From NCBI RefSeq assembly GCF_002752635.1, contig NZ_AYTW01000001.1:56830-120829 (forward strand): DNA of 64,000 bases, written 5' to 3'. A program made the translations under genes and the position numbers. Below the pieces are notes generated by a model. The model had not been told where the DNA came from, searched no databases, and worked only from the letters and a program-made list of their open reading frames with translations. Positions within the stretch are counted from its first letter, which is position 1. Every line of letters starts with the position of its first letter. This document shows, in pieces, positions 7,956-63,577 of the stretch. The stretch comes from Mesotoga sp. Brook.08.105.5.1. GTDB lineage: Bacteria > Thermotogota > Thermotogae > Petrotogales > Kosmotogaceae.

Positions 7956-8165
7956 ACCGGAGTCGGAAAGAGCGGAATAAGACGCAAGGCGCCGGAAAGC
8001 ATCGGCGGACGCAAGGCTGGGAAGAACATCCCAGGTCGCAATGCTGCCTTCGGCAGGAGGCGAGGCCGACTTCTTCGGGAAGTGAGGCTCGCTGACGCGA
8101 GGAAATGATGCCGCTTTCAGCGGGAGGCTTAAGAACCTTGGATCCCGGATCAGGTCCGAAATCGC
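7956..8165 (+). repeat. Dispersed repeat family, copy 1
   Basis: Begins with ACCGG, then GGAATAAGACGCAAGGC, then a second GACGCAAGGCTGGGAAGAAC, followed by CAGGTCGCAATGCTGCC and short palindromes such as GCCTTCGGC. The same blocks occur near 51.0 kb and 62.5 kb on the same strand and near 20.7 and 40.9 kb on the other. It lies directly after the truncated end of the BNR lipoprotein frame. Nothing else is seen between 8166 and the PadR promoter region. Confidence 0.75.
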
Positions 8166-8295
8166 GTGCTCAGTAGCATCAGATAATTGTAAATGAGGAG
8201 TCAGTAGGCTTTTTTGATGCCAGTCTCTTATCTTCTCGAAAGGCAAGCCTAAATTCACAGAAGGTTAACTAACACTATACCATTACGTTATAGTG

Positions 8296-8316
8296 ATACC
8301 GTATATTACACGGTAT
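8296..8316. promoter_or_regulatory. Inverted repeat upstream of padR-like gene, probable operator
   Basis: ATACCGT at 8296-8302 and ACGGTAT at 8310-8316 form a perfect 7-bp inverted repeat with a 7-bp AT spacer, 32 bases before the PadR start codon. PadR repressors typically bind such dyads in their own promoters, so autoregulation of the PadR/HAAS pair is likely (inference). Confidence 0.55.
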
Positions 8317-8347
8317 ACTAATATCAACATAGTACAGAGGTGATGTT

Positions 8348-8671
8348 ATGGATATAGGGAAACTGGCAACGGAAATGAACAGAGGCTTTATACAACTATT
8401 GATAATGGTAATGCTGGATGTACCTATGTACGGGTACGATATCGTTAAGACGCTGGGCGAGAAGGGTTTCTCAATCGATGAGAACACTTTGTACCCGCTT
8501 CTGAGAAGACTTGAAGAGAGGGAGATCCTTTTAAGCGAGTGGAGAGTCGAGGAGAACAAACCGAGGAAGTATTATTTCGTATCCGACACCGGACGTAGAG
8601 TCAGAGAAGAACTCCTTCGGATCTGGCGTGAACAGGAGCAGCTATTGAAGAGCTTTATTGGGGAGGTATGA
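8348..8671 (+). CDS. PadR-family transcriptional regulator
   Basis: 107-residue winged-helix repressor of the small PadR-s2 type: YGYDIVKTLGEKGF (recognition region), ENTLYPLLRRLEERE, and the wing W-V-E-E-N-K-P-R-KYY, followed by a C-terminal dimerisation helix. SD AGAGGTGAT precedes ATG 8348. It is coupled to the next gene, whose start lies 3 bases after this stop. PadR regulators paired with HAAS-domain membrane proteins form a recurrent two-gene unit in Gram-positive and related bacteria (established pattern). Confidence 0.93.
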   Translation: MDIGKLATEMNRGFIQLLIMVMLDVPMYGYDIVKTLGEKGFSIDENTLYPLLRRLEEREILLSEWRVEENKPRKYYFVSDTGRRVREELLRIWREQEQLLKSFIGEV

Positions 8672-8673
8672 AA

Positions 8674-9605
8674 ATGGGAAAAATGAAAAAGTATCTTGAC
8701 GATGTGAGAACGTTTTTACCGGGAACCGATCCAAAAAAGTGGATGAGATTCTTCGAGAGATTGAAAGCCACGTTCTAGAAAGGGCAGAGCGAGAACACGG
8801 CGAAATCAACGACACCACGGTCGCTATGTCCATAAAGGAATACGGTTCACCCGAAGAGGTTGCGGCGAGGTATTATGAGGGCGGCCCGATCATCGCTCCT
8901 CATCTGAAGAACTATCTCTTCATGTACACGGGAATCCTATTCGCGATTCACCTCGGACTGCATCTTATCGCTTTTGTTTTTGGCGAGAATGGCGCGATCT
9001 TTGATTTAAGGGGAACCGATCTACTGAGCCTTCTCTCACAACTTCCAGTGACTTTCGTATTTGACTTCGGACTCGTCAGCTTGATTCTTTATTTCGTGAC
9101 GCAGGCAAAGGGTACTGCAAAGCTCCCCCATTTCACATATTTCATCAGAGAAGAAAAGGCGCCTTCCATTGGCAAGAGGATTGGATCTCTTATAGGAACC
9201 TCTGCTGGCGCCGTGATAACCTTCCTGGCCTTCACATACGGACCGTTCTATCTTGGAAACGGTGAGTTGACAGAGATCGCGATTGTTGCACTTGACTCAT
9301 TCAAGTTCGGTCTCTTCCTGGCTTTTGGATTGTTGATAATAGATTCAGTATCAAATCTGATCAACATTTTCAATTACTCGAGGTTCAGCAAAATCGTTTC
9401 AAATACTCTTGGCCTTGTCTTTCTCTTTCTTGCAGTCTCGCCCGATTACAAACCAGATATCGCATCTTATCTGAGTCTTAACCCTTCAAGTGTCGATCAC
9501 CCCATGCTTGTCGCAATACTATTCTTAATGGCTATAGTATTAATCGTGGATCTGGTGTTCGAAACCATAAAGTTCTGGGCTAGCAGAATTGTAAGAACTA
9601 ATTGA
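8674..9605 (+). CDS. HAAS (DUF1700-like) membrane protein requiring a -1 frameshift
   Basis: From ATG 8674 (GGAGG at 8662-8666) the frame encodes MGKMKKYLDDVRTFLPGTDPKK and then meets TAG at 8776. The family's next residues (VDEILREIESHVLE) are in the -1 frame, starting with GTG 8739 and open to 9605, followed by about six hydrophobic segments and the ending FWASRIVRTN. The switch point is A AAA AAG at 8733-8739, the dnaX-type slippery heptamer in the correct phase for -1 frameshifting. The N-terminal HAAS domain normally senses and binds the paired PadR. Either the full product of about 310 residues is made by frameshifting or slippage, or the gene has lost one base and is dead. Confidence 0.75.
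8733..8739 (+). other. Candidate -1 frameshift site A AAA AAG
   Basis: The heptamer AAAAAAG is phased as A AAA AAG in the frame read from 8674, and a -1 shift leads into exactly the long open frame that continues to 9605. A Shine-Dalgarno-like GGGA (8721-8724) lies 8 bases upstream, which resembles the arrangement in E. coli dnaX. I see no strong downstream stem-loop by eye. A simple one-base deletion in the homopolymer explains the sequence equally well. Confidence 0.5.
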
Positions 9606-9625
9606 GACTGTCCGATGCAAATCCT

Positions 9626-9650
9626 GAGGGGCGTTGCCCCTCTTTTTCTT
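9626..9650 (+). terminator. Rho-independent terminator after the PadR/HAAS pair
   Basis: GAGGGGC-GTT-GCCCCTC stem-loop (9626-9642) followed by TTTTTCTT, 21 bases after the HAAS gene stop. Confidence 0.85.
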
Positions 9651-9942
9651 GCAGATAAGACCTTCATCACAATAGTAAAGTTGAGAATTTCAGATCAATT
9701 TGTTGTTCTTTTGGAGGCTGTTTGTTTCAATAACTAGCTTACTCCGTTGATTAGTCAAGGGGGTAGAGTAAATCAACAATCTCTATCGCATTTTCACTGG
9801 CCAATCTCTCACCCGGAATCTACTTGGTTATACAATTCATTAGGCAGTCTTCATAAGGTCTTGAAGAACTCCCTTTGTTGGAGTCTGACTTTGGAATTCT
9901 GCTTCCGGGTGAGTCATTTTCCTTAGCTGCAGGAGGTACAAT
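9651..9942. other. Intergenic stretch, no gene seen
   Basis: About 290 bases with no supported coding frame. It contains the AGGAGGT Shine-Dalgarno (around 9932) for the following TTG-started permease pseudogene. No clear promoter was identified. Confidence 0.4.
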
Positions 9943-10984
9943 TTGGCCGCTTACATTATTAGAAGACTTCTGTTCTTGCCAGTTGTTGCCTTCGTTGTTA
10001 CGCTGGTTGTGTTCGCAGTCATTTGGTCAATGGGGCCGGACGTATTGCTTAGAGCATATATGACGGGAAACGCTTCGAAGTCCCCGAATGCTGAACAGAG
10101 GATAATCGAGAAGTACGGGCTCGACAAACCGGCAGTTGTCATGTACTTCAAGTGGCTTGGGAACACTATTAAGGGTGACATGGGATACTCATTGACTGCC
10201 AGCTCATCGGTTTCTGAAGCCATTATCTCAAGACTTCCGGCAAGCCTCGAACTGCTCGTGCTTGCACTTATCCCAATAATCTTAGTAGGTTCAAGGCTTG
10301 GTATTAGAGCTGCGATGCATCCAGATGGGGTTTCAGATTCTGTCTTTGGATTTTTTTCAATAGTAGGCTGGGCGACTCCAGATTATGTAATGGCTTTGCT
10401 AATCCTGGTTGGCAGCTTCACCATATTCGGCTGGCTTCCTATAGGCAGTCTGACTACTGGATTGATTAAAGATTGGAACTCCTACACGAACTCCCTAATA
10501 ATCGATTCAATACTTAATCTGCGCTTCGATATCCTTTTGTCTCAAATAATCAATCTTGTACAACCTGTACTGACTCTCTTCATTGTGCACTCGGCTTATG
10601 TTTTTCAGATAAGCAGGGCAACTCCTCTCGATGTCAAGAAAAGAGATTATGTTAGGGCAGCAAGATCAAGAGGTGTGAGCGAAAGAACGATAATGTTAAG
10701 GCATGTTAGAAAGAATGCTCTGATTCCTGTCGCAACTGTTGGAGGCGAGCTCTTTGCATCCTTTTCGCAGGACTTCCTTTGTTGAAACCATCTTTGCGAG
10801 ACCGGGTATAGGAAGGCTGCTAACTGACGCAGCAATAAGCGTTGAAGTGCTGACACTCTCAGGCTGTGTACTTCTGATAGCCGCCATGATGATTATCGTG
10901 AATATCGTTGTAGATATTATCTATTCCTTAATCGACCCACGAATTCTTCTCTGGGATAATGGGAAGGGATCTAGAGCAGATTAA
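9943..10984 (+). pseudogene. Peptide ABC transporter permease, DppB type, frameshifted
   Basis: The first frame (TTG 9943, good AGGAGGT) gives a typical DppB N-terminus, AYIIRRLLFLPVVAFVVTLVVF, and runs through the EAA-like region YVRAARSRGVSERTIMLRHV before stopping at 10785. The remaining C-terminus (FVETIFARPGIGRLL ... LIDPRILL) is in another frame beginning near 10775. At least two small indels separate them, around 10755-10780. No binding protein, DppC or ATPase is nearby, so this is an orphan, decayed permease. The complete system at 52750-58240 is intact by contrast. Confidence 0.8.
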
Positions 10985-11092
10985 CGTTTTCTGGCCGCTC
11001 ACAGAATTTGACTAGCGATTGAGCAGACAGTCTGGAAAGTAGATCGCTTTTGGATGTTGCAGACGTACAATGAACGTTAGGGGGTGAAACCC

Positions 11093-11596
11093 ATGAAGAA
11101 GTCCGTTCTAGTACTTTTCATTCTGCTTGTTGCTTCGCTCTCACTCGGCAGCCTTTCTCTGGGACTGATCAATGCAGCTGCAAAGACCGAGTCTCTTTCG
11201 AACACTCCACTTTCCGGCTTCGTTGGAATAGACGTGCTGGGCATAGATCTGCGGTACGATCTTGGACCTTTATCGTTCGGAGTGGCAACTCCATTTCTAA
11301 TGTTTACTCTCTCTGAAGACACCGGCGTTAAGACCTCTTTTGTGATCCCTGGAGTTGCCTGGTTAGGATATGCAGGGCTGAAGCTTGATATGGGAGTCTT
11401 CTATTTCAGGGGAGACATCGGTCACACATTCGCTTTTGGAGAGCAGTTGCAGCTGGGCTTTTCTCCTCTCAGACTGGGAGTTGGAATGAATATCATTCCC
11501 AATTACTACATAGAGTTCAACACAGCTGTAATTCTCCAGAGATTCAGCGAGACTGTGGGGAAGATCTACGACTTCAAGATCGGTTACAGATTCTGA
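11093..11596 (+). CDS. Small exported beta-barrel-like envelope protein
   Basis: 167 residues with a clear signal peptide (KKSVLVLFILLVASLSLGSLSLG) and a mature part made of alternating amphipathic strands (DLRYDLGPLSFGVA, LGYAGLKLDMGVFYFRGDIG) that ends in KIGYRF. A terminal Phe after alternating aromatics is the usual outer-membrane-barrel signature. AGGGGG at 11079-11084 points to ATG 11093 rather than the GTG at 11084. It is probably a minor outer-membrane (toga) protein of unknown function. The adjacent lipoprotein gene follows after a short gap, so the two may be cotranscribed. Confidence 0.6.
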   Translation: MKKSVLVLFILLVASLSLGSLSLGLINAAAKTESLSNTPLSGFVGIDVLGIDLRYDLGPLSFGVATPFLMFTLSEDTGVKTSFVIPGVAWLGYAGLKLDMGVFYFRGDIGHTFAFGEQLQLGFSPLRLGVGMNIIPNYYIEFNTAVILQRFSETVGKIYDFKIGYRF

Positions 11597-11617
11597 TAGA
11601 AAAAAGAGGTGGTAAAG

Positions 11618-12118
11618 ATGAAGAAATTGCTTGCAACGGCCATTGTGGCAACAGTGCTGGCAATGTCTTGTCTTTCGAGGAATCCCACGATTGAGGTGTA
11701 CAGAAATCGTTTCAACTCAGTTACCTACTACGATATCGAGAAATTCAGCGAGAATTTGAAAACAGAGAGTATCAATATTTCGCGTAATGAGAAGCGTATG
11801 CTGGAAGACGGAGACATTCTTGTTTATCTCACAGACCAGAATAGACTCAGAAAGATGCTTATACTAGAGCTCGACAGGGACAATCGAGGTTTCATGTTCT
11901 TTGACTTTGTTACGTATGACGAGAAGGGGCAAATATTAGTCGAGAAGAAGTATGTGAAGCTTCAGGCTTCGTATATTTTCGACTTCGACAAAGGAATCAT
12001 CCCTGAAAAGACCGAAGGTGTCGAACTATGGTGGCACAATCTGGATGACGTCGAGATGTATCTCGTTCCATGGAATCCAGCGAAGCTCGGAAAATACCCG
12101 ACTGCAGGGCTGAATTGA
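11618..12118 (+). CDS. Hypothetical lipoprotein
   Basis: 166 residues. The N-terminus MKKLLATAIVATVLAMSC contains a lipobox (LAMSC), which predicts a diacylglyceryl-anchored exported protein. The mature part is charged and soluble with no motif that I recognise (YDIEKFSENLKTESINIS; VYLTDQNRLRKMLILEL). The start chosen is ATG 11618 behind GAGGTGG; a GTG at 11609 would overlap the SD. It lies 21 bases after the barrel-like gene. Function unknown. Confidence 0.65.
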   Translation: MKKLLATAIVATVLAMSCLSRNPTIEVYRNRFNSVTYYDIEKFSENLKTESINISRNEKRMLEDGDILVYLTDQNRLRKMLILELDRDNRGFMFFDFVTYDEKGQILVEKKYVKLQASYIFDFDKGIIPEKTEGVELWWHNLDDVEMYLVPWNPAKLGKYPTAGLN

Positions 12119-12243
12119 CAAGCAGCGAACTCGTTCCAAGAAGCGGAGTTTTCACTGAAGGGATTTCAGAACAACCTTGAATCAAAGATTGCTCTCTGTT
12201 AACTAACCGGAACTTGAACGACTCTAGAAGCGAAATCCATTCT

Positions 12244-12678
12244 CTAGAACTCAAGCTGAACGAGAAATGTGGGAACTATCTTCAGGCTAGTATCGACAAA
12301 AAACTCCCCAGGCAGATTAACGGGAAATCCCAGTTCTGCACCGATAAAAAGCCTTCCAAAATCAGTGGCGAACCCATAGTTCGCACCTGCTCGTGCGAGA
12401 AGGAGGCCTTCCATTTCACCGAGGTGAAAAAGGATCTCAGTTCCACCGTGAACTCTCCAGGAGGCGATATCTTTGTAAAGATACAGACCCGGAACCAATA
12501 CAATTGAATCTGTATCAAAGATTACTCCCGCCTTGGCCTGAAATCCAAGAAGCCACGTATCAAAATTTATTGCGGCAAAGGGCTCGAAATGACCGTGTAT
12601 CTTGACGCCGACACCGAAACCAATTCCAATGGCGGATGCAGAAATAACAAGTACCAAAGCAATACAGACAAACCTCAT
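12244..12678 (-). CDS. Small exported beta-barrel-like protein
   Basis: 144 residues with a signal peptide (MRFVCIALVLVISASAIG) and repeated amphipathic strands with glycines (GFGVGVKIHGHFEPFAAINFDTWLLGFQAKAG), ending in Phe (FLVQLEF) like outer-membrane barrels. It resembles the 11093-11596 product in style but is encoded convergently. The start ATG 12678 lies behind GAGGAGG on the minus strand; GTG 12690 overlaps that site. Function unknown. The 125 bases between it and the lipoprotein gene show no feature. Confidence 0.6.
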   Translation of the reverse strand: MRFVCIALVLVISASAIGIGFGVGVKIHGHFEPFAAINFDTWLLGFQAKAGVIFDTDSIVLVPGLYLYKDIASWRVHGGTEILFHLGEMEGLLLARAGANYGFATDFGRLFIGAELGFPVNLPGEFFVDTSLKIVPTFLVQLEF

Positions 12679-12894
12679 GAAAGCATACACCTCCTCGAAT
12701 AGTCCAATTCTATCTCAAGTCGAGTCAATAATCCCTAGAAAGTGCTCAATAGTATAGTACAAAACTCGCTTAGCGAACAGACACCTTCAAGAGTGATAGA
12801 ATTAACTCGTAATTACCACTTCTCTCATCTGTTCTCTGTTACATTCGGCAGGAGTACTTTCCAATCGTCCAATTAAGAGTTTAAGGAGGCTAAG

Positions 12895-14370
12895 ATGGCA
12901 AAGATTGTTATCATCGGAGGTGGAATCGGCGGACTGGCCGCGGGGTGTTTTGCCAGAATGAACGGATTCGACCCGATAATACTTGAGAAGTCAAGCAAAT
13001 TGGGCGGTCTATGCACCTCATAGGATAGAGGCGGATATGTTTTCGATGGCTGTATTCGCCATCTTGCTGGGCTACTTCCGGATACCCCTCTCTACAACAT
13101 GCGGAAGGATTTGGGCGCCATGCCTTCAGAAGTTCACTTCCCCGAAGAGTTGGTGAAAGCAGAAGATCAATCGGGCAATAAGTTCACGGTATACCACGAT
13201 CTCGAAAGACTTGAAACCGAAATGAAGAGAATCGCTCCCGAAGACTCTAATACAATAGGGGACTATATCAACGGAATCCGCAGACTTTCCGACGTGGATC
13301 TTATGGAAGTGGGATTCTGGAAATTCAGAGACTGGATCAAGAACATCTTTGTTCTCATAAAGAACAGAAAGGTCACGAAGTACACGACGATTGCTTTTGC
13401 TCAGAGATTCAAGAATCCTGCCTTAAGGATGTTCTTTCCAGTCATTCAATATGGTTGGGCAATAATCCCCATGACTCTCAATCTTTGAGTAATGGCAGGC
13501 TCCAACGCAAAGAGATACGGAAGGTACTCCGGAGGTTCCGGTAAGTTCATCGAGTCAATCGTGAAGAGATACGCTTCCCTCGGAGGCGAGATACTGTACG
13601 ATTCGTCAGCAGTTAAGGTCATTGAAAGGGAGGGAAAGGCAGTCGGAGTAAGGCTCAAAAGTGGTCAGAGCTTAACGCCGACTATGTGGTTTCAGATGTT
13701 TACGCCTATGATACTTTTAAGAAACTGATAGATGAGAGACACCTCACCGATCGTCTGCGCTCGATGTATTCAAAGCCCTTCGACAGAATGATGATGGCTC
13801 TGCATGTGCCTTTTGGCATTGACATGGACCTGTCACAATTGCCGAATGCAATGTCCCTCTTTCTGGATAAACCGATTGAGATTGCAGGTGACGGTGTTCC
13901 ATAGTAAACCTTCTGAATTACAGTTATGATGGAACAATGGCACCAAAGGGAAAGACCAGTTCAAAGTTATGTATGACACCTATTGGTCTTACTGGGAGGA
14001 ACTCTCAAAGGGCCAAAGAAAATACGAAGAAGTAAAGGAAAAGATTGCCAGTAACACGATCATGGCAATCGAGAGATTCATTCCCGGTATCACCGATGCA
14101 GTTGAAGTAACAGATGTCACAAAGCCAATGACTACAGAGAAGTTCACGTCAAATGGACGAGGCTACGAGAGCAAAGAGGACTTTCGAATGAAAGACACTC
14201 TCAGAGGCTTCCTCAACAAGCCGTTGGTATTGAAGACTCTGAAGAACTTCTACGTGATCGGCCACTCCATAGGAGGAACCAACCTCTACGGCTGTACCGC
14301 GATGGGCAGGAACACCTCAAAAAGATCTGCAAGAAAGAGAAGAAGAGTTTTGTGGGTTCCTGAGATATAG
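12895..14370 (+). pseudogene. CrtI/phytoene-desaturase-like FAD oxidoreductase, multiply broken
   Basis: ATG 12895 behind AAGGAGG starts a Rossmann FAD-binding segment (KIVIIGGGIGGLAAGCFARMNG) typical of the CrtI/amine-oxidase-like family, and later blocks GRYSGGSGKFIESIVKRY and FYVIGHSIGG fit the same family. The frame is interrupted by TAG 13021-13023 (after GGLCTS, before DRGGYVFDGC) and TGA 13486-13488, then at least three frameshifts near 13670, 13900 and 13960. The two stops sit where Trp would fit. The gene is dead. It once encoded about 490 residues, probably acting on an isoprenoid or related hydrophobic substrate. Confidence 0.85.
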
Positions 14371-14444
14371 ATTCAATACGATTACTCTCTGAAGTAGCAA
14401 GGAGAGGAATACTACAAGATCCCTCTCCTCAAAAAGTATCGCCT

Positions 14445-15569: not shown

Positions 15570-15573
15570 CAGG

Positions 15574-20520: not shown

Positions 20521-20905
20521 GTTCCCAGATCCGCTGTACGCCGAAAGATCAGTTGCAAGTTCTCAGTTCCGAGTTGCAAGCATAAGAACCGTAGTGCGCT
20601 TAAAAGCGGAGAACCCGCTGATCGCTGTGAGATTAAGTTCCCCCATCAACTTTTTAGTGGCAAACGGATTTTGGTCTTCCGAGCGTTCAGCGCTCAGCGA
20701 AAAGCGGCTCTTTCCCTGCGAAGCAGGCATTGCTATCACTGATGCTCTTCGGCGCCTTGCGTCTAATGTTTTGTTCTTCTTAACGCCTATAGCTTGCAAC
20801 TTGGAACTGACAACTTGCAACTGTTCTTACGAAGGACGGGTCCATGATCCGAAGGACCAAGGACGTCTCCTCACAGCGCACAAATCTTCTGCTGCCATGC
20901 ATCTC
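20521..20905 (-). repeat. Dispersed repeat family, copy 2
   Basis: Contains CCAGATCCGCTGTACGC, GAACCCGCTGATCGCTG, CAGCGAAAAGCGGCTC, the palindrome CCTGCGAAGCAGG, the reverse complement of the GACGCAAGGC block (CTTGCGTCTAATG, 20758-20770) and, at 20834, GGACGGGTCCATGATC, which recurs at 40629 and 63493. It adjoins the truncated S10 gene. ORFs across it differ between copies and are not believed. Confidence 0.7.
20552..20821. mobile_element. MITE-like unit inside repeat copy 2, bounded by 30-bp inverted repeats
   Basis: GTTGCAAGTT...AGTTGCAAGC at 20552-20581 and its inverted counterpart GCTTGCAACT...AACTTGCAAC at 20792-20821 match at 28 of 30 positions, delimiting 270 bp with no coding capacity. 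No target-site duplication is obvious. Other copies of the repeat family in this window lack these ends, so this may be a separate insertion or a locally duplicated end. Confidence 0.4.
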
Positions 20906-40619: not shown

Positions 40620-40985
40620 CTTTCGGTGGACGGGTTCATGATCTGGGACGATGGACCAAGGATGTCTCCTCAAAGCTGATCGCTGCTAAAAACAACGTTG
40701 AACCCAGCAAAAGCTTCCCAGACGAAGTGGGCATTGCGTCCCTGAACAATCTTCGCCGGCATTCCGATTCGGAGGACGATGGACCGTTGACGGTCAACGT
40801 TGTGCTCAGCAGCGTTCAGCGAAAAGCGTCTCTTTCCCCGCGAAGCGGGCACTGCGACCTAGCGTGATCTTCGCTAGCCTTGCGTCTGATGTTTTATTCC
40901 AGCATCACTTTCTGGGGCAGCCAACCTTGCGCCCCGCCGAAGGCGGCAATACATCTTGTGTCAGCGATAACCGGCTCTTGCCATT
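40620..40985 (-). repeat. Dispersed repeat family, copy 3
   Basis: Starts with GGACGGGTTCATGATCTGGG, continues with GCTGATCGCTGCTAAAAAC, AACGTTGAACCCAGCAAAAG, GACGGTCAACGTTGTGCTC, GCGTTCAGCGAAAAGCG, the palindrome CCCCGCGAAGCGGG, and the reverse of the core block (CTTGCGTCTGATGTTTTATT at about 40892), ending with GCCCCGCCGAAGGCGGC. The order matches copy 4. It directly follows the truncated binding-protein pseudogene. The bases 40569-40619 and 40986-41012 show nothing. Confidence 0.75.
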
Positions 40986-51009: not shown

Positions 51010-51428
51010 ACCGGTTGGGGGTTGGAGTGGAATAAGACGCAAGGCTCCGAAAAGCACGATATCCTGGCCTGAAGCAGGATGTCGCGAAGGGATGTAGTGA
51101 GCAGCCCTGCCCCGAAGATCCGCTGCGCGCTTAAGAACTTGAACCCGCTGATCGCTGACGAAGACAACGTTGAACCAATAAAAGCTTCCCCACGAAGCGC
51201 GCATTGCGACCTGAACCGTTCTTGCCCAGTCCTGCGTCTGATGTTTTATTCCAGCATCACTTCTACTCTTGTTGATTTCGGAGGACGGTGGACTGTTGAC
51301 GGTCAACGTTGTGCTCAGCAGCGTTCAGCGAAAAGCGGGTTTATTATGCCTCCTGCCGAAGGCGGCAATGCGTCTTGTCTATGCGATTGTTTTGCCACGA
51401 GAACGCTCTTTCTTGTTCTTCTGAACTA
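51010..51428 (+). repeat. Dispersed repeat family, copy 4
   Basis: Forward block ACCGGTTGGGGGTTGG...GGAATAAGACGCAAGGC, then AAGATCCGCTGCGCGCTTAAG, CCCGCTGATCGCTGA, AACGTTGAACCAATAAAAGC, reverse core CTGCGTCTGATGTTTTATTC, GGAGGACGGTGGAC, GACGGTCAACGTTGTGCTC, GCGTTCAGCGAAAAGCG and palindrome TGCCGAAGGCGGCA. Bases 51113-51340 are nearly identical to the reverse complement of about 62930-62700. It starts 20 bases after the complete gntR gene. Open frames across it (both strands) recur in the other copy only because the DNA is conserved. Confidence 0.85.
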
Positions 51429-54321: not shown

Positions 54322-54330
54322 TGTGTCCCC

Positions 54331-54354: not shown

Positions 54355-54396
54355 TATTCTTTCTGAAAAATCAGATATTGATGCGGGGGTAATTCT

Positions 54397-55407: not shown

Positions 55408-55412
55408 TCTAG

Positions 55413-56285: not shown

Positions 56286-56289
56286 TCTT

Positions 56290-57282
56290 ATGGAGCTGAA
56301 AGGAAAACTACTGGACGTATCCAACCTGAAGGTATCTTTCTACACATACAGGGGAGTCGTCCAGGCACTCAATGGTGTCGACCTCTGGATGGATTCCGGT
56401 GAGAGACTGGGAGTCGTCGGGGAGACCGGTTGCGGGAAGTCAGTTACATCTCTGGCAGTAATGCGATTGATAGAACAGCCCGGTGAGATTCAGGAAGGAA
56501 AAGTGATTTTCAATGGCACGAATCTCGTCGAACTCACCGAAGAGAAGATGAATCGGGTAAGAGGCGCCGAAATGTCTATGATATTCCAGGAACCACGTTC
56601 ATCGCTGAACCCGGTAATGAAGGTAGGCTATCAGATCGGTGAGTCAATAGCGAAATCCAAGAAACTCAAGATCAAGCACACCTACCCCGAGGTCAAAGAG
56701 ATACTACGCCTTGTCGGGCTTGATCCCGAAAGAGTTATGAACAGCTATCCACACGAACTCAGCGGTGGAATGTCTCAGAGAGTAATGATTGGCATGGGAC
56801 TTGCAAGTCATCCAAAACTGTTAATAGCCGATGAACCAACATCTGCTCTGGATGTTACCATTCAAGCTCAGATTCTTGAGTTGCTCGACGAACTGGCTAG
56901 AAAGATGGGGAACGCCGTCATGTTGATTACACACGATATGGGAGTCGTTGCGGAATTCTGTGACAAAGTACTTGTAATGTACGCCGGAAACTCGGTCGAA
57001 TATGCATCTACTGCCAGACTGTTCGAAAAGCCGTTACATCCTTACACGGGTGGTCTGCTTCAGGCGGTACCGAGAGTAGGAAGAACAGATGAACTCAAGG
57101 CAATAAAGGGAACTGTTCCCGATCTGGTGAACCCTCCTTCCGGTTGCCGATTCCACCCGAGATGTCCGCACTCGATGGATATCTGCAAAGTGGAAAGACC
57201 ACCATTTGTGGAGATCGAGCCCGATCATTACGTTGCCTGCTATCTCTTCGAAGGAAAGAGCGAGGTGAGAGAAGATGCCTGA
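56290..57282 (+). CDS. dppD: Peptide ABC transporter ATPase, DppD type
   Basis: 330 residues: Walker A GETGCGKSVTS (about residue 43), signature ELSGGMSQRVMIGMGLA, Walker B LLIADEPTSALDVT, then the oligopeptide-ATPase C-terminal cysteine cluster CRFHPRCPHSMDIC (Fe-S-like region of DppD/OppD). It overlaps dppF by 8 bases. Cytoplasmic, forms the heterodimeric motor with DppF. Confidence 0.95.
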   Translation: MELKGKLLDVSNLKVSFYTYRGVVQALNGVDLWMDSGERLGVVGETGCGKSVTSLAVMRLIEQPGEIQEGKVIFNGTNLVELTEEKMNRVRGAEMSMIFQEPRSSLNPVMKVGYQIGESIAKSKKLKIKHTYPEVKEILRLVGLDPERVMNSYPHELSGGMSQRVMIGMGLASHPKLLIADEPTSALDVTIQAQILELLDELARKMGNAVMLITHDMGVVAEFCDKVLVMYAGNSVEYASTARLFEKPLHPYTGGLLQAVPRVGRTDELKAIKGTVPDLVNPPSGCRFHPRCPHSMDICKVERPPFVEIEPDHYVACYLFEGKSEVREDA

Positions 57283-58240
57283 GACCTTAATCAAAATAAG
57301 AGGACTTAAGACTTACTTTCCGGTGAAGAAGTCGATCTTCTCGAAGAAGCTCTTTGTTAGAGCAGTAGACGACGTGAATATGGACATTCCAACGGGCTCA
57401 ACCTTTGCCGTGGTCGGAGAGTCTGGCTCGGGAAAGACGACTCTTGCAAGAACCATTCTCAGACTAATAGAACCGACTTCAGGTGAAATAGAATTCGAAG
57501 GAAAGGACATACTTGGACTCAAAGGCAGGGACCTGCTCGAAGTTAGAAGAAATATGCAGATCGTTTTCCAGGACCCATACAATTCTCTTCATCCCAGAAA
57601 GCTTATAAAGAACATAATTGGGGAAGGGATGAAGATTCATTTCAAGATCACCGACGTCGAAATACGAGACAGGATTGCGGCCGTTCTTAAAGAAGTAGGG
57701 TTGATAGACGATCACATGTACAGATACGCACATGAATTCTCTGGTGGGCAAAGACAGAGGATTGCATTTGCGAGAGCCATGGTTCTCAAACCGAAGTTCA
57801 TCGTTCTTGACGAACCTACATCGGCACTGGATGTCTCAGTTCAGGCAATGGTTCTGAAGATGATGAAGGAAATAAAGGTTCAAGAAAACCTGACGTATAT
57901 GTTCATAACACACAATCTATCCCTTGTGGATTACATCGCCGATAGAGTGGCCGTTATGTATGTCGGAGAAGTAGTTGAGATGGGAGACAAGAATACGATC
58001 TTCAAACATCCCTCTCACCCATACACTGATCTGTTAATGGCTTCCAACCCTGTCCCGGATCCGAAGTTCGTAAGGGAAAAGCGTTTGTTGAAAGGGGAGA
58101 TACCCAGTTCGATCAATCCCCCTTCCGGCTGTAGGTTCCACAACAGATGCCCCTTCGCAGACGAACGCTGCGCTAAAGAGGCCCCCGCTCTCAAGGAGAT
58201 AGGACCCGATCATCATGTGAGGTGTCACTATCCTCTCTAG
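57275..58240 (+). CDS. dppF: Peptide ABC transporter ATPase, DppF type
   Basis: 321 residues: Walker A GESGSGKTTLARTI, Q-loop MQIVFQDPYNSLHPRK, signature EFSGGQRQRIAFARAMV, Walker B FIVLDEPTSALDVS and the C-terminal cysteine cluster CRFHNRCPFADERC. Last gene of the epimerase-Dpp operon; a strong terminator follows at 58257. Confidence 0.95.
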   Translation: MPETLIKIRGLKTYFPVKKSIFSKKLFVRAVDDVNMDIPTGSTFAVVGESGSGKTTLARTILRLIEPTSGEIEFEGKDILGLKGRDLLEVRRNMQIVFQDPYNSLHPRKLIKNIIGEGMKIHFKITDVEIRDRIAAVLKEVGLIDDHMYRYAHEFSGGQRQRIAFARAMVLKPKFIVLDEPTSALDVSVQAMVLKMMKEIKVQENLTYMFITHNLSLVDYIADRVAVMYVGEVVEMGDKNTIFKHPSHPYTDLLMASNPVPDPKFVREKRLLKGEIPSSINPPSGCRFHNRCPFADERCAKEAPALKEIGPDHHVRCHYPL

Positions 58241-58256
58241 TTCTTGAGACTGATTT

Positions 58257-58286
58257 AAGGCATGTCTCTCAAGACATGCCTTTTTT
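58257..58286 (+). terminator. Terminator of the Dpp operon
   Basis: AAGGCATGTCT-CTCA-AGACATGCCTT stem with a TTTTTT run, 17 bases after the dppF stop. Confidence 0.92.
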
Positions 58287-58301
58287 GTGCAGGGAACCGT
58301 G

Positions 58302-59174
58302 CTACCCGACAACTTTTATCTTTGACTTCTGAACTATGAGTACCCCGAGAAGAATCGCACCCATTGCCAGGATCATGAGGAAGTTGATCTTTTCATCAAG
58401 GAAGATGGCTCCTAGTGAGACGGCAACCAGTGGATTTATATAAGCATAAGTACCCGCCTTCGTGGCCGGCCACTTCTGAAGAAGATATATATAACTGCTG
58501 TAGGCAATCAGGGACCCGAAAACAACGAGATAAGCAATTGCCAGAAGCGAGTTCATCGAGAACCTAACTCTTGAAAATTCACCAGTTATGCCCGAGACAA
58601 ACATAAGCCCCACACCACCTGCAAACATCTGAATCCCGATATTTGATACTATCGAACTGTTCCCCTTGAAGGTTTTTGACAGTACCGTTCCAGTAGACCA
58701 GAGGAAGCTGGCAGAGAGAAGCATAAGTATTCCTGGGATGTCGATAGAAATACCGTGTTCGGCCGGAACCAGAAGAAAGTAGACACCGAAAAAACCCAGC
58801 AGAAGTCCCGAAAGCGCCTTCAAAGTCAACCGTGTCGTTCTTATGAAAAAGTGCTCCAATACCCCGGCAAAGATCGGGATGGTAGCCATTATGAGAGAAG
58901 CAACGCCTGAATCAACCCACTGTTCGGCATAGACGACGAGTCCATTTCCACCAAGAAGCATGAAAAGACCAACCAGCCAAAGTCTAGAAAGCTCCGACTT
59001 GCTCGAAGGAAAGGAGTATCCTCGGACGACAGAGAAGACCAGCATAATAGAGCCCGCAATGAGAAATCTCACTCCGGCAAAGAACATAGGCGGCATGCCT
59101 TCAACGCCGATCTTTATCGCCAGATAAGTAGATCCCCAGAAGAAACTCACTAGAACGTACGCAAGTATGGCCAT
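58302..59174 (-). CDS. EamA-family (DMT superfamily) transporter
   Basis: 290 residues with ten hydrophobic segments in two EamA repeats: N-terminal LVSFFWGSTYLAIKIGVEGMPPMFFAGVRFLIAGSIML and C-terminal VFGSLIAYSSYIYLLQKWPATKAGTYAYINPLVAVSLGAIFLDEKIN. The pattern is that of RhaT/YedA-like metabolite exporters. Inner membrane; substrate unknown. ATG 59174 (behind GTGGAG) is preferred over TTG 59195. It is convergent with the Dpp operon across the 58257 terminator. Confidence 0.9.
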   Translation of the reverse strand: MAILAYVLVSFFWGSTYLAIKIGVEGMPPMFFAGVRFLIAGSIMLVFSVVRGYSFPSSKSELSRLWLVGLFMLLGGNGLVVYAEQWVDSGVASLIMATIPIFAGVLEHFFIRTTRLTLKALSGLLLGFFGVYFLLVPAEHGISIDIPGILMLLSASFLWSTGTVLSKTFKGNSSIVSNIGIQMFAGGVGLMFVSGITGEFSRVRFSMNSLLAIAYLVVFGSLIAYSSYIYLLQKWPATKAGTYAYINPLVAVSLGAIFLDEKINFLMILAMGAILLGVLIVQKSKIKVVG

Positions 59175-59195
59175 TCCATCTCCACTTCTCTTCAA

Positions 59196-59643
59196 AGCTC
59201 AACCTCATGCGTCCGAACAAAGCACGGAGTAATGATCGAATTATCCGACAACAAAAGATGAAAAACAATACGGCTTAGAAACTTTTGTGAAAAGAAGGGG
59301 CTATTCACGCAGCTCTGTTCACGGAAATACCTGGATCCAGCTGGACGATCCGAGGTCCTAGATATCAAGATAAGGCTGCAGGTGCTTCTCATAGACAGAA
59401 TACTGAGAGTTCTCACTGAAAAGAGACAATTAAGTGGCACATATTATCCGTTAATCTTTGGCCTCAGGGGCTGAAGGACAAGGCAACACACATAAACCTT
59501 CAACAGGAGAAGCTCTCTGATAAGCCTGGCAGTTGTAACCGTCTTCTGAGAAGTTGAACTGCATTCATCCATGCAGCCTTCTGATGGAAGAGAGCAAGCC
59601 GGCCACTGTTTAATCGAACTATGGGAATCAGCGAACGGTCGTA
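59196..59643. other. Intergenic stretch, no gene seen
   Basis: About 450 bases between the DMT gene and the alpha/beta hydrolase remnant. Open frames on both strands have no recognisable product and no good ribosome sites. No dispersed repeat core was found here. Confidence 0.4.
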
Positions 59644-60510
59644 CTACTTCAGAAAAGCAATCAACTGACCGGCGATCTTTTCCGGAAACTGATAGATAGC
59701 TCCGTGCCCTCCGTTACTAAGTCTCACGAGACATGAGTTTTCTATCGCTTCTGCGAGGATCAGAGAGTTCTTTGCGGGAACAATAATATCGTCCGTTCCC
59801 GTTATTATGATCGTTTCTGACTCGATCGACTTCAGTCTCTCGAAGGTTCCGCTCCAGCTGCCAGCGGCAGTGTACTGATCAGAAATTCATCTTTGCTCTC
59901 CACTCTCTTCCTGACTGGAGGAGCCCGTAAATCTCGCAGCGACCTCCAGATGAGCCAGGGTCCAGTCGGTGAGGAAGAGAACCTTCAAAAGCACCTCAGG
60001 ATCGCCCATGTTCTGGAGCATAGAGATCTCCTCATCCGAAGGAGGTATCGACTCGGATCCTCCGCAGCTTGTCGAGAGAAGGATGAGTTTACCTGTCAAC
60101 TCGGGATATTTTAGAGCGAACTCCTGCGCGATATACCCTCCCATAGACCAACCCATCACACTGACCTTTTCAGAACCGATGGTTCTGACAAGATCGGCTG
60201 CATCTTTTGCAAACGGCTCTATTGAAGGAGTTGCATTAGAAGTTGTCGATCTTCCGATCCCTCTGTTATCGAATACTATAACGGTGAACTCTTTTGAGAG
60301 TGCAGAAACAACATACGAATCCCAGCTCTCGAGGGGCGAACCATATCCTGCGATCATCAACAGAGGAGAACCTTTTCCAAAGACCTTGTATGCCATTCTT
60401 TTATCGCCGACCTGCACTTTCTTAACCGGAGCGGAATACAATTCAGGAACGTCTTGAGCGAAAAGCGATGCCGATAGAAGAGCAATTACGGCAAGAACTG
60501 AGTTTTTCAT
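59644..60510 (-). pseudogene. Exported alpha/beta hydrolase with a single in-frame TGA
   Basis: One frame of 289 codons from ATG 60510 (SD GGGGGATTGAG) to TAG 59644, broken only by TGA at 59887-59889. The product has a signal peptide (NSVLAVIALLSASLFA), oxyanion region LLMIAGYGSPLESW, FDNRGIGRSTT, nucleophile elbow SVMGWSMGGYIA, and, after the TGA, IIITGTDDIIVPAKNS (acid) and LSNGGHGAIYQFPE (His). It resembles the alpha/beta hydrolases that process peptides or lactones outside the cytoplasm. All catalytic residues survive, so the stop is recent or is read through. Confidence 0.7.
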
Positions 60511-60528
60511 CTCAATCCCCCCGTACAA

Positions 60529-60943
60529 ATAAACAACAGATTATACTCCAGGAACTATAACTGCAATCTCTTTCCTTCGACAGAATCGTGCGCTTCCCAC
60601 GCTTCACACAAAGAATGAATCCCGGAACTCGATTGTTTGCAGTGTATCTGTCTATAGCTATCGGGAAAGCAACCTTTCAATACCTTACCCAGTCTCGTCG
60701 CCTACACTTTCAAGTGTCATCGATGGGTCAACTATCTGGGTCATCGAGATCGCATCCGGGTCGCTTACAGCGGCCTATATCTAATCTAGCTCATAGATGT
60801 ACTGAACTTGGCCGTATTGGGATCGATTTTCAAATCCAGATCAGTCTATTCTCTGGTTGTTTCTTGTCTTTATCCAGATTTGACGTCAAACGATAACCAT
60901 TACTGAGCAACCGGGAGAAGCTTGGCTAAACAAATACCGCTCA
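60529..60943. other. Intergenic stretch, no gene seen
   Basis: About 415 bases between the hydrolase and aminotransferase genes. An open frame at 60588-60896 on the plus strand has no recognisable content. Nothing else found. Confidence 0.4.
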
Positions 60944-62164
60944 TTATTCTCTCCGGTATCTTTCAATGAGCTGTACCGTTCGTTTAATTGCCTCCACTGC
61001 AAAGTGATGATCTTGAGAGAAATTGATCCGAAAACTATTGGTAAACTGAGGGCCAAATTCCGTTCCGATTGTCACCGTAACATCGGCTTGAAATCTTAGG
61101 ATTTTCACAAACTCTCTCATGGTGACTCTCAACTCGGGAATTCTCACAAAAAGATAACTACCGGCTTCTGTTTTTCTGACTTTGACACCTTCCACGCCGT
61201 GAAGCAGTGCCACCAGATCATCTCGAATCCTTTGATGTGCACTTATTCGATCTTCCATCCATCCCTCTGGTTCGTTGAACCACGATGTAAGTACCGCTTG
61301 AGAATATCCTCCGGCCCGCAGAGAGACTATTGCCTGTAGTTTTTCCATTCGTGCAATGATGTTTTTGGAGCCAAAAGCAACTCCCAAACGATAGCCGCTT
61401 AAAGACTCTGTTTTGGATGGACCGATGATTGTGATTAGACTGACGGGTTTCGTGTCTTGGGCACACAGATGTGTATACACTCTGCCATCGAATATCTGTC
61501 TTGCATACAGTTGATCTGCGATAACTGATACATCATATTTCTTTGCAAGGAAAGCGATAGATCGAATCTCATCATACGAATAAATGACACCGGTCGGGTT
61601 ATTAGGATTGGAGAACAAGAAGACCCTAACACCAGTTTTGAAAGCATCTTCAAGCTCGGCTAAATTCAAACCGGCTCGTCTACCAGATTCCAGAAAATCC
61701 AATGCAACTGGAATGACTTCTCCATCGAAGAATTGCACCAGTTTTCTGTTGGCGAAATAGTCGGGCTCAACTATTGCAACCTTATCTCCACGGCCAATTG
61801 ACGATCCCATTGCCAGAAAAAGCGCCCCCTGGGTTCCCGGTGTAATAATGAGTTGCGTATCTGGAGAAATTGTAGTGTTGGTGAAAGCAGAAAGCTTTTC
61901 AGACAACCATTCTCGTATGTTGCCTCTTCCTTTGTACTCAGTATACGCTTGCTCACCGCCCAAGTGAACGCCTTCTACAAATGCATCTAATGACCCCGGG
62001 ATCGGTTCAAACGCATTGACATCCCCATGAGAAAAATCAACCGGTCTTCCGGTAATCTTCTCTCCTATCAGTCGAAGCCCCTCGCCATCTTGAAGAGTCT
62101 CCTGTCCAGGAGCGTTATCTACACCAAGCATTGAAAACTTTCCTATTAACTGATCCATCATCAC
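60944..62164 (-). CDS. PLP-dependent class I/II aminotransferase
   Basis: 406 residues of fold type I. Visible blocks: ITPGTQGALFLAMGSSIGRGD, IVEPDYFANRK, VFLFSNPNNPTGVIYSYDE (Asn binding the PLP ring environment), Asp-Tyr region SVIADQLYAR, Schiff-base Lys in IIGPSKTESLSGYRLGVAFG, and the carboxylate-binding Arg in FRINFS. The amino-acid substrate is not clear. ATG 62164 lies 7 bases behind AAGGA; an upstream TTG/ATG at 62203 gives an atypical N-terminus. Cytoplasmic, monocistronic. Confidence 0.9.
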   Translation of the reverse strand: MMMDQLIGKFSMLGVDNAPGQETLQDGEGLRLIGEKITGRPVDFSHGDVNAFEPIPGSLDAFVEGVHLGGEQAYTEYKGRGNIREWLSEKLSAFTNTTISPDTQLIITPGTQGALFLAMGSSIGRGDKVAIVEPDYFANRKLVQFFDGEVIPVALDFLESGRRAGLNLAELEDAFKTGVRVFLFSNPNNPTGVIYSYDEIRSIAFLAKKYDVSVIADQLYARQIFDGRVYTHLCAQDTKPVSLITIIGPSKTESLSGYRLGVAFGSKNIIARMEKLQAIVSLRAGGYSQAVLTSWFNEPEGWMEDRISAHQRIRDDLVALLHGVEGVKVRKTEAGSYLFVRIPELRVTMREFVKILRFQADVTVTIGTEFGPQFTNSFRINFSQDHHFAVEAIKRTVQLIERYRRE

Positions 62165-62458
62165 ATCGTCCTTCCATATGATATCGTTCCACACTCGGTT
62201 CACTCACAGACGCCCGATGCTTCAACGATCTGCCCATTTATAGAAATCACTCAAGATCCTCTTCAATAAAGAACCAACAGTACAAGCAAGTTCGGATTTC
62301 TTTTGCTATGACACTTCTCTTCTGGCGGAAATCTGCGGCTACATTTATCGAAGCTCTCCTCAATAAGAATGCATACTAATCCTGAAGAAAACCAAGAATG
62401 CCCTCATTTTATCATTTAGTAAATGAAATCGAAACTGCGGAAAGCCGTTGTCGTGGAT

Positions 62459-63130
62459 AGCGGGTTTGGGTTGGAAAGAGTGGAATAAGACGCAAGGCTG
62501 GGAAGAACAACCCAGGTCGCAATGCTGCCTCCGGCAGGAAGTGAAGCTCGCAGCGCGAGGAAGTGATGCTGCTCAGGAAGTGATGCCCGGAAAAACGTCC
62601 GGGGAAGTTATGCGCCGAAAAGCATCAGCGGAAGTGATGCCACCTTCGGTGGGACGTAATGCACTGAAGAGCATCAGTGGACCCAAGCCCCGCTTCGCGG
62701 GGAAAGAGCCGCTTTTCGCTGAACGCTGCTGAGCACAATGTTGACCGTCATCGGTCCACCGTCCTCCGAAATCAACAAGAGTAGAAGTGATGCTGGAATA
62801 AAACATCAGACGCAGGGCTGGGCAAGAACGGTTCAGGTCGCAATGCGTGCTTCGTGGGGAAGCTTTTATTGGTTCAACGATTCTTCAGCAGCGATCAGCG
62901 GGTTCTTGTTTTTAAGCGTACAGCGGAACTTCAGGAGCCAGTCTGCTAACACAGGTCAGTTCCGACTTCTCGGGCGAAGGAGGCGTTGAACGCTTGAGAG
63001 AACATGCTGGGCGCTGTGAAGAGCAGTTGCAGGGAAAACGAGAGACGAGGTTGGGAATCGGAAGAGCAAGGCGAGATCGGTTGGCCGTTGAATGGTTCTC
63101 TGGTCGCTGAGGGAAAAAACCTGTTTTTCC
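62459..63130 (+). repeat. Dispersed repeat family, copy 5 (longest)
   Basis: Two direct core blocks (GGAATAAGACGCAAGGC at about 62483, and GGAATAAAACATCAGACGC at about 62795), each followed by CAGGTCGCAATGC; between them hairpins such as CCCCGCTTCGCGGGG and ACCTTCGGTGG; CGCTTTTCGCTGAACGC and GAGCACAATGTTGACCGTC (reverse of copies 3 and 4); then GCAGCGATCAGCGGGTTC. The last part (from about 63040) is the short module shared with 31.8 kb. Bases 62204-62458 before it show nothing. Confidence 0.85.
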
Positions 63131-63480
63131 AGAGCGAGGGTCTGTTCTTCTTAATTCAACCATTTATCCAAAGAATAGAGAGAAGGGGAAAGCAAAGAGG
63201 CCAAGTAACGATCTGAGATCTCCAAAAGCCTTGAAGGGTTCTTTAATCCCCTCTCGAGCTCATTATTTCCATAAGTCAGAGAGTTGGTGAGAAATCATAT
63301 GATGCTCTTCCTCCCTTAACAAGATATGCTGTGTCAGGCTCTTGATTATCTTGATCTTATGTCCTCTCTCGCGATGGATCGAGATCTTGGCCAGAATCAT
63401 GCCAGATGACGTGAAGTAGGAAAAGACTGGGGATTCCAGATCTGCTCTTCCGACCTCTTGCCTCTGACCTCAGGCTCTTC
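63131..63480. other. Intergenic stretch, no supported gene
   Basis: A 70-80 codon frame on the minus strand (reading MILAKISIHRERGHKIKIIK) is open, but I recognise nothing in it and see no start site. No promoter or RNA gene was found. Confidence 0.3.
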
Positions 63481-63577
63481 CCAACGCCAAGGACGGGTCC
63501 ATGATCTGGGACGAAGGACTAAGGACGGCTCTTCACAGCGTTCAGCGGGTCTTTGTTCTTAAGCTTACAGCGGATCT
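63481..63577 (-). repeat. Dispersed repeat family, copy 6 (partial)
   Basis: GGACGGGTCCATGATCTGGG, CTCACAGCGTTCAGCGGG-type blocks and TTAAGCTTACAGCGGATC recur from copies 2, 3 and 4. It stops where the group II intron similarity begins. Confidence 0.65.

What the first reader, a model, noticed from the sequence alone, without database searches (positions are those of the whole stretch)
7956..63577. Uncharacterised family of modular, palindrome-rich dispersed repeats
At least six intergenic copies (about 7956, 20521, 40620, 51010, 62459, 63481) share blocks such as GGAATAAGACGCAAGGC, CAGGTCGCAATGC, GCGTTCAGCGAAAAGCG and GACGGTCAACGTTGTGCTC, in varying order and orientation and separated by short GC hairpins with GAA or TTCG loops. 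Copies 4 and 5 are nearly identical over about 230 bp in inverted orientation, so spread or conversion is recent. They encode no transposase. They look like a REP/BIME- or MITE-type family, but the modular shuffling is unusual.
Basis: seen in the sequence. Interest (0 to 1): 0.85.

Follow-up and report, generated by a model that had tools for sequence, protein, structure and literature searches.

The report
Mesotoga's shuffled arrays of DNA hairpins
Bacteria of the genus Mesotoga carry, between their genes, arrays of tiny hairpin-forming DNA pieces strung on one fixed 11-letter linker; an array stands at one site in one strain and is missing from that site in a close relative, and the arrays likely spread and reshuffle as DNA, by recombination, rather than working as RNA.

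Summary
The repeats are real and go well beyond the window. The "blocks" are pieces of one grammar: an 11-nt linker (GGAAGTGATGC or sister forms) alternating with short hairpins of about a dozen types. The exact linker occurs 116 times in this genome against 2 for the reversed control. Stems pair far above an arm-shuffling control. Mismatches are as often A-C as G-T (16 each), unlike tRNA stems of the same genome (39 G-T, 0 A-C), so the pairing does not look kept as RNA. Linkers exceed the control in 7 of 10 Mesotoga genomes and not in 3. Content differs between species at the same site; at one site an array is present in an M. prima-like contig and absent in a relative 98.6% identical upstream. 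Y1/RAYT transposase genes do not track the arrays. I read them as a nearly genus-restricted, non-coding palindromic DNA repeat that likely spreads by recombination and segment copying. It resembles REP/BIME, but tag, stem length and layout differ from described GTAG and CGTC REPs. The mobilising enzyme and any function remain unknown.

The parts
7980..8122 (+). Array 1: six linkers (AGACGCAAGGC, GGACGCAAGGC, GGTCGCAATGC, GGAGGCGAGGC, GGAAGTGAGGC, GGAAATGATGC), each followed by a hairpin (stems GCCG, TGGG, TGCC, CGAC, TCGC, CGCT)
   Evidence: 7965-8046 has a 98% match in another species (G009:C26) at a place that is not the syntenic one; closest copy in the window 92% over 59 nt
20716..20764 (-). 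Array 2: two linkers (20754-20764, 20727-20737) with hairpins GCCGAAGAGCATCAGT (mismatched arms) and CTGCTTCGCAG
   Evidence: sequence
40838..40934 (-). Array 3: linkers at 40924, 40902, 40877, 40849, the last followed by hairpin CCGCTTCGCGG
51190..51264 (-). Array 4: linkers at 51254 and 51201 with an imperfect one between; lies in the segment copied, inverted, at 62709-62879
62488..62700 (+). Array 5a: nine linkers, followed by hairpins TGGG, TGCC, TCGC, a shortened TGCTCA, CCGG, GCCG, CACC, ACTG, CCGC
   Evidence: parts recur at G000:C22:7432-7570 (94%) and G000:C13:56554-56682 (89%)
62783..62857 (+). Array 5b: three linkers; inverted copy of array 4
62709..62932 (.). Segment nearly identical, inverted, to 51114-51338 (225 nt, 93.3%); spans array 5b and neighbouring non-array modules, so the copied unit is not one array
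51114..51338 (.). Partner of 62709-62932
63491..63580 (.). Other intergenic modules shared with 40628-40676 and 51113-51157; no linker-hairpin array

Best explanation
These are arrays of short, mostly fully paired hairpin sequences joined head to tail by one fixed linker, and they likely spread and reshuffle as DNA, by recombination through the shared linkers and by copying of whole stretches between intergenic regions, with no transposase of their own. Shown here: the grammar, the pairing, the absence of an RNA-type mismatch pattern, mostly intergenic placement without a consistent strand preference, restriction almost wholly to one genus, different content at the same site in different species, and high-identity copies with varied ends. 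Inferred: linkers and flanking modules serve as short homologies for cassette exchange and conversion; stems stay paired because copying or correction acts on the DNA palindrome (for example template switching), not because an RNA fold is selected. Not shown: any enzyme, any transcript, any benefit to the cell.
For: Grammar: 548 inter-linker segments (all loci held at that time, several genomes, repeats of the same context removed) peak at 11, 12, 16 and 17 nt. The 4-bp stems are wholly Watson-Crick in 90 of 105, 41 of 47, 171 of 221 and 74 of 93; with 3' arms reassigned among units the means are 20%, 84%, 23% and 27%, so the 12-mers, nearly all of one stem type, are uninformative. Among 177 distinct hairpins with at least 3 of 4 pairs, 125 are complete in register and 0, 1 and 0 when the partner is slid by 1, 2 or 3 nt in one direction. 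Without assuming a linker, the commonest 8-mers before hairpins of intergenic DNA are linker pieces. The loop motif ARRANCRT sits in 42 of 65 distinct, fully paired 16-mers, across the four commonest stems. DNA rather than RNA: 16 G-T, 16 A-C and 30 other mismatches in 438 units (28 units with under 3 pairs dropped; 15, 13 and 24 in distinct hairpins), or 32 G-T, 30 A-C and 38 other when a fifth pair is counted in the longer hairpins, against 39 G-T and 0 A-C in 34 tRNAs of the same genome (Fisher p 2e-7, distinct 1.5e-6). Placement in G000: tandem genes, same strand 13, opposite 11. Spread: at the window-51010 site the gap between syntenic genes is 100 bp in G007 (no exact linkers) and 677 bp here by the same alignments, and differs wholly in G004, G009 and G001. 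3' of an FAD-oxidase gene, an M. prima-like contig (L096) has an array 31 bp after the stop where G001, 98.6% identical over 3,659 bp upstream, has none for 1.1 kb. 257 within-genome alignments (60 nt or more, 90% or more, at least one linker) are held in 263 kb of stretches; the 40 longest have varied ends. Hairpin type is tied equally to the preceding and the following linker (MI 1.09 and 1.07; shuffled 0.32 and 0.33), so no one-sided [linker+hairpin] cassette stands out.
Against: Recombination through linkers is not observed directly: any two arrays share linkers, so alignment ends cannot test it. Order is not random (EF 28 against 10.4 in shuffles, AE 20 against 6.7, HJ 16 against 4.3), which fits block copying as well as shuffling. 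A 4-hairpin form recurs in 12 copies in several genomes with one 3' flank (exact in 6, near in 4) and a few similar 5' flanks, as a discrete mobile unit would. In G001 placement is less even: the downstream gene is on the array's strand in 24 of 36 cases and only 2 of 36 lie between convergent genes, against 13 of 67 gaps. Folding energies of one array are only moderately better than shuffles (RNA z -2.4, DNA z -2.8, other strand RNA z -1.9). An equal G-T/A-C count also follows from plain neutral decay, so it speaks against RNA constraint more than for a DNA correction mechanism.
Confidence: 0.55

Rival explanations
1. REP-like mobile DNA: a Y1 (RAYT or IS200/IS605-type) transposase would recognise the hairpins as single-stranded DNA and move arrays, as proposed for REPINs.
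For: Y1_Tnp (PF01797) matches exist in G000, G004, G009, G006 and G007; the longer proteins are about 250-340 aa, and two from G000 were confirmed in Pfam. Array units lie on both sides of a Y1 gene in G009 and a degenerate Y1 gene lies next to an array in G000:C16. A 4-hairpin form recurs in 12 copies with recurrent flanks.
Against: No Y1_Tnp in G001 (2 contigs, 89 exact linkers), G002, G005 or G008, all with arrays (G005 and G008 are only about 80% complete); present in G006 and G007, which have 2 and 0 exact linkers: 3 of 7 array-rich genomes against 2 of 3 array-poor ones. Around two Y1 genes of G000 another repeat is found (GGGACAGACTCCAT, 5 and 7 times in 9 kb).
Confidence: 0.2
2. Structured RNA: arrays would be transcribed and act as multi-hairpin RNAs (mRNA 3' ends, sponges, or sites for an RNA-binding protein).
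For: Conserved unpaired linker and loop motif with variable paired stems is the usual mark of a structured RNA. One array folds better than shuffles as RNA (z -2.4). In G001 the downstream gene is on the array's strand in 24 of 36 cases.
Against: No excess of G-T over A-C mismatches, against 39 to 0 in tRNAs. No consistent strand or gene-end preference over the two genomes sampled. No Rfam match in the window's arrays. Array content at one site differs between species and, at one site, between close relatives.
Confidence: 0.12
3. DNA-level structural or protein-binding sites: linkers would bind an architectural or regulatory protein (as BIMEs bind IHF or gyrase in E. coli, recalled), kept for chromosome organisation.
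For: High copy number and a conserved linker.
Against: Linkers are not above control in G003, G006 and G007 of the same genus; content at one site differs between relatives.
Confidence: 0.1

Closest known systems
REP / BIME / REPIN (GTAG-tagged, RAYT-linked)
   Same: Short, high-copy, intergenic palindromes arranged in mosaics
   Different: GTAG or CTAC in 6 of 466 units; no correlation with Y1 genes; hairpins of different sequence on one linker, head to tail, rather than inverted doublets of one REP (PMC3116915, passages; PMC3733652, passages and section 6)
CGTC-tagged REPs, CGTC-3 family, already reported for M. prima and K. olearia (PMC3733652)
   Same: Small palindromes in Mesotoga without a dedicated transposase; 160 of 466 units have GACG (CGTC on the other strand) at the hairpin foot
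   Different: The paper gives 8-9 bp stems with AT in the first two positions, mostly head-to-head dimers, head-to-tail negligible (section 6). Here AT at the foot in 1 of 466, 4-6 bp stems, head-to-tail arrays. Its Figure 2 with the sequences is not held, so I could not compare letters.
Small dispersed repeats (SDR) of cyanobacteria
   Same: Recalled: 20-30 nt mobile repeats with hairpin potential and compensatory changes
   Different: The original paper was not listed, only papers that name it; comparison from recall only
Repetitive hairpin-forming / double-hairpin elements of mitochondria (PMC2800124)
   Same: Hairpins dispersed in intergenic DNA, sometimes in tandem double or triple hairpins, GC-rich in some species
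   Different: There stems are conserved and loops vary (passages); here linker and loop motif are shared and stems differ in type
RepRanger palindromes of M. prima (PMC12306157)
   Same: A table lists 1,814 for M. prima in what I read as its palindrome column (passage)
   Different: A generic k-mer palindrome count (section 15); in the abstract, passages and two sections that I read no arrays or linker are described

Membership tests
GTAG REP / REPIN | unpaired GTAG tag at one end | tested here: not met
   GTAG or CTAC in 6 of 466 units
GTAG REP / REPIN | RAYT (Y1 transposase) in the genome, flanked by the repeat | tested here: not met
   no Y1_Tnp match in 4 of 7 array-rich genomes (two of them about 80% complete), match in 2 of 3 array-poor ones; array units do flank one Y1 gene in G009
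GTAG REP / REPIN | high-copy intergenic palindromes | tested here: met
   (7 of 97 arrays overlapped an ORF of 200 aa or more, from a simple ORF picker that discards shorter ORFs over arrays)
CGTC REP | CGTC tag next to the stem | tested here: inconclusive
   160 of 466 units, the GGACGC dialect only
CGTC REP | 8-9 bp stem with AT in the first two positions | tested here: not met
   AT in 1 of 466; stems 4-6 bp
CGTC REP | mostly head-to-head dimers | tested here: not met
   units are head to tail in arrays
MITE | terminal inverted repeats and target duplication at fixed ends | tested here: inconclusive
   ends of high-identity copies vary, but a 4-hairpin form has recurrent flanks; segments inside a CRISPR array are flanked by about 16-20 nt of repeated sequence that may be only the CRISPR repeat itself
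Structured non-coding RNA | G-U tolerance in stems | tested here: not met
   16 G-T, 16 A-C against 39 and 0 in tRNAs
Structured non-coding RNA | transcription | not testable with these tools
   no RNA data
CRISPR | identical repeats with unique spacers | tested here: not met
   the parts between linkers are recurring self-complementary hairpins

The most novel reading that the evidence does not exclude
A new kind of bacterial repeat: an 'alphabet' of interchangeable DNA hairpins on a fixed linker, written and rewritten in intergenic DNA by palindrome-aware copying, without a transposase and without an RNA role.
Probability: 0.3. Interest if true: 0.75.

Novelty: new variant of a known kind. 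Interest (0 to 1): 0.55.

Why it matters
Small palindromic repeats are common in bacteria, but how they arise, stay paired and multiply without a transposase is open; the 2013 survey of CGTC repeats leaves it open for its own families (passages). These arrays give hundreds of related, oriented units with a shared linker, genomes of one genus with and without them, and sites whose content differs between relatives. That makes the question testable: does the pairing come from DNA copying or from RNA selection? The mismatch-polarity test used here (G-T against A-C, calibrated on tRNAs) can be applied to any palindromic repeat family.

Tried and rejected
AAGAGC as a common insertion point: AAGAGC is the commonest hexamer of 79 kb of intergenic-like DNA, but AAGADC is at most 2.9-fold enriched at the edges of linker-free repeat alignments and stands directly before the first linker in 3 of 60 arrays; rejected as the arrays' insertion signal. 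One ancestral long array thinned by deletion: rejected because order is not monotonic (for example F before A 21 times, A before F 34). That tally assigned hairpin types M, P and Q only at array ends, so I draw nothing from their position. A [linker+hairpin] cassette with one polarity: not supported. A 1.44 kb 'IS' carrying the array: its reading frame is an FAD-linked oxidase (PF02913, PF01565). Presence in other phyla: of 15 stretches found in 84,980 species genomes, 8 are other tandem repeats by reading (L087, L088, L090-L093, L098, L099; dropped from the counts). The other 7 are Mesotoga/Kosmotogaceae contigs (5) or look mis-binned (L096: 98.6-99% M. prima-like over 3.66 kb; L094: judged by its array only). 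Viral contigs (exact two-linker pattern), plasmids and phages (one 502-nt copy): no match. In print: the listings of searches show no paper on these arrays; beyond the papers named in this report I saw titles and abstract starts only. Of the 58 papers holding one of three linker strings only 10 were listed, and none of those titles concerns Mesotoga. PMC4603820, a Mesotoga genome paper, was seen in passages only; its repeat passages concern CRISPR.
Full report
What was checked. The window is G000:C1:56830-120829 of a 2.99 Mb, 61-contig genome. The genus is Mesotoga by inference from contig lengths: G008 contig C22 has 18,922 bases, as has contig WOZY01000027.1 of a Mesotoga sp. record; the lineage is Thermotogota, Kosmotogaceae. 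All six places of the finding share blocks with others of the set.

Grammar. Printed side by side, the copies split into an 11-nt linker and a hairpin, repeated head to tail. Periods of about 22-23 and 27-28 nt recur. Linkers come in two dialects, GGAAGTGATGC/GGAAGTGAGGC and GGACGCAAGGC/GGACGCAATGC/GGTCGCAATGC. Each hairpin type has preferred linkers on both sides, with equal mutual information (1.09 preceding, 1.07 following; shuffled 0.32 and 0.33). Hairpins fall into a small set: TGCC, CGAC, TGGC and CACC stems mostly with a TTC loop; TCGC with TGGC; CCGG, GCCG, ACTG, TGGG, TGGC and CGGC with longer loops. The last C of one linker can pair with the first G of the next, so stems are 5-6 bp. 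An unguided scan for hairpins in intergenic DNA returned linker pieces as the commonest preceding 8-mers.

Pairing. Fully Watson-Crick 4-bp stems: 90 of 105 (11-mers), 41 of 47 (12-mers), 171 of 221 (16-mers), 74 of 93 (17-mers); with 3' arms dealt out anew among units of the same length the means are 20%, 84%, 23% and 27%. The 12-mers are nearly all one stem and carry no information. The units come from several genomes, so some are inherited together. Among 177 distinct hairpins with at least 3 of 4 pairs, 125 are complete in register and 0, 1 and 0 when slid by 1, 2 or 3 nt in one direction; choosing at least 3 pairs favours the register. The loop motif ARRANCRT is found in 42 of 65 distinct, fully paired 16-mers, spread over the four commonest unrelated stems. 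So linker and loop motif are shared while stems differ and still pair.

RNA or DNA. If an RNA fold were selected, G-U would be tolerated, so G-T should exceed A-C on the linker strand. It does not: 16 to 16 cells, with 30 of other kinds, in 438 units (28 units with fewer than 3 pairs left out); 15 to 13, with 24 other, in distinct hairpins. Counting a fifth pair in the 16- and 17-mers gives 32 G-T, 30 A-C and 38 other single mismatches among 466 units, 336 being perfect and 30 having two or more. Thirty-four tRNA genes of this genome give 39 G-T and 0 A-C. Relative to neighbouring genes, G000 arrays show no strand preference (tandem genes: 13 same, 11 opposite; 24 tandem, 13 convergent, 12 divergent, 11 unknown, against 66, 24 and 24 for all gaps). 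In G001 the downstream gene is on the array's strand in 24 of 36 and the upstream gene in 15 of 36, and the settings are 23 tandem, 2 convergent, 11 divergent, 1 unknown, against 39, 13 and 15. So the two genomes do not agree on a pattern. Genes were called by a simple ORF picker, and the stretches were chosen because they hold arrays.

Distribution. Exact linker counts on both strands, with the reversed control in brackets: G000 116 (2), G009 133 (2), G001 89 (0), G004 44 (1), G002 39 (1), G008 14 (0), G005 12 (0), G006 2 (4), G003 0 (2), G007 0 (2). Of 40 relatives searched with one copy, 7 matched: 6 of the genus and G010, another genus of the family, with one match; an array was read there. 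A scan of 84,980 species genomes for two linkers 11-17 nt apart gave 15 stretches, of which 7 are such arrays.

Turnover. Between the two genes flanking the window-51010 array, G007 has 100 bp against 677 in the window by the same alignments, with no repeats seen; G009 has 679 against 412, G004 1.1 kb against 372, and G001 4.2 kb against 475, the last including a group II intron. Repeat content differs wholly. Downstream of an FAD-linked oxidase gene, the first array linker lies 31 bp after the gene in L096, 43 in G009, 49 in G005, 131 in G008, 156 in one G002 copy, 174 in G000 and 469 in G004. The intact G001 copy and the other G002 copy show no array in the 700 bp printed (one or two lone linker-like matches in about 2 kb), and in G007 and G006 the next reading frame starts about 30 bp after the stop. 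L096, a contig filed under Acidobacteriota, matches G001 at 98.6% over 3,659 bp and then holds an array where the G001 copy at that point has none; there the first array-like linkers come 1.1 kb on, on the other strand. That G001 gene copy is internally deleted, so a wider rearrangement is not excluded, and whether the array was gained or lost is not known.

Copies. Within 263 kb of this genome's stretches, 257 alignments of at least 60 nt and 90% identity hold a linker (reciprocal ones removed where coordinates agreed); the 40 longest (110-653 nt) start and stop at many different points and often span other module families. Window 7965-8046 has a 98% match over 82 bp in G009 at another place, while neighbouring genes match G009 at 74-83%. 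A 4-hairpin form was found in 12 copies over several genomes, with the 3' flank GGAGGCAAAAACCAAAGAAAAAGAGC exact in 6 and near in 4, and a few related 5' flanks. Order of hairpins is neither fixed nor random; GF (15 against 10.1) and FG (11 against 9.9) lie within the shuffles.

Enzymes. Y1_Tnp matches were found in G000, G004, G009, G006 and G007 and not in G001, G002, G005, G008 or G003, so they do not track the arrays; G005 and G008 are about 80% complete. Group II introns were found in 7 of 10 genomes, and several sit in another module.

Known families. The arrays miss the GTAG tag (6 of 466 units). CGTC-3 REPs have been reported in M. prima (PMC3733652, section 6), with 8-9 bp AT-footed stems, CGTC elements being mostly head-to-head dimers; the arrays have an AT foot in 1 of 466, 4-6 bp stems and head-to-tail order. 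In 160 of 466 units the neighbouring linker does carry CGTC on the other strand, so remote kinship with CGTC REPs is not excluded. REPIN (PMC3116915) and mitochondrial hairpin elements (PMC2800124) were read in passages only. SDRs are compared from recall.

Verdict. The repeat family is real, nearly genus-restricted and changing, with a regular architecture that I have not seen described. The reading that it spreads and keeps its pairing at the DNA level is the best supported, at moderate confidence.

Noticed in passing
window 63594-64000; L135, L128, L130-L132, L153-L164: The window's end matches at 98.5% part of a multi-copy group II intron region of G001; RF01999 has 13 matches in G000 and 14 in G001. 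Several copies sit at the same point inside another intergenic repeat (CAGTTGCAAGTTG-like), as if that repeat were their homing site.
   Followed up: partly
L128 3166-4651, L129 6666-9719 (G001): Composite repeat segments with hairpin arrays occupy spacer positions at one end of two CRISPR arrays of G001: 7 near-identical ones of about 256 nt with constant junctions and 2 of another make-up (298 and 832 nt).
   Followed up: partly
L113 2977-3885, L114 3725-4645, L116 6876-7760, L118 5340-6224: RAYT-like Y1 transposase genes of about 300 aa; GGGACAGACTCCAT occurs 5, 7 and 2 times in L113, L114 and L118, a repeat family separate from the arrays.
   Followed up: partly
L118 3400-5345 (reverse strand), L137: A second array type with linker GGCCAGTC (or GACTGGCC) and hairpins such as TTTGCTTCGCAAA and CACCTTCGGTG, sharing hairpins with the main arrays (by reading).
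   Followed up: no
intergenic stretches of G000: AAGAGC is the most frequent of all 4,096 hexamers in intergenic-like DNA and, by reading, often joins different repeat modules (for example GGTTGG-AAGAGC).
   Followed up: partly
L113, L114, L118, L128: Palindromes such as GAGATCCCGTA...TACGGGATGAC, possibly the CGTC-3 REPs reported for M. prima; not compared letter by letter. GTCATCCCG is absent from the window itself.
   Followed up: no
L096, L094: Contigs filed under Acidobacteriota and Bacteroidales MAGs carry Mesotoga arrays; L096 is M. prima-like DNA, so probably mis-binned.
   Followed up: partly
L195 4040-4304 (G001): An FAD-oxidase gene copy in G001 is internally deleted where L096 has a full-length reading frame.
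   Followed up: no
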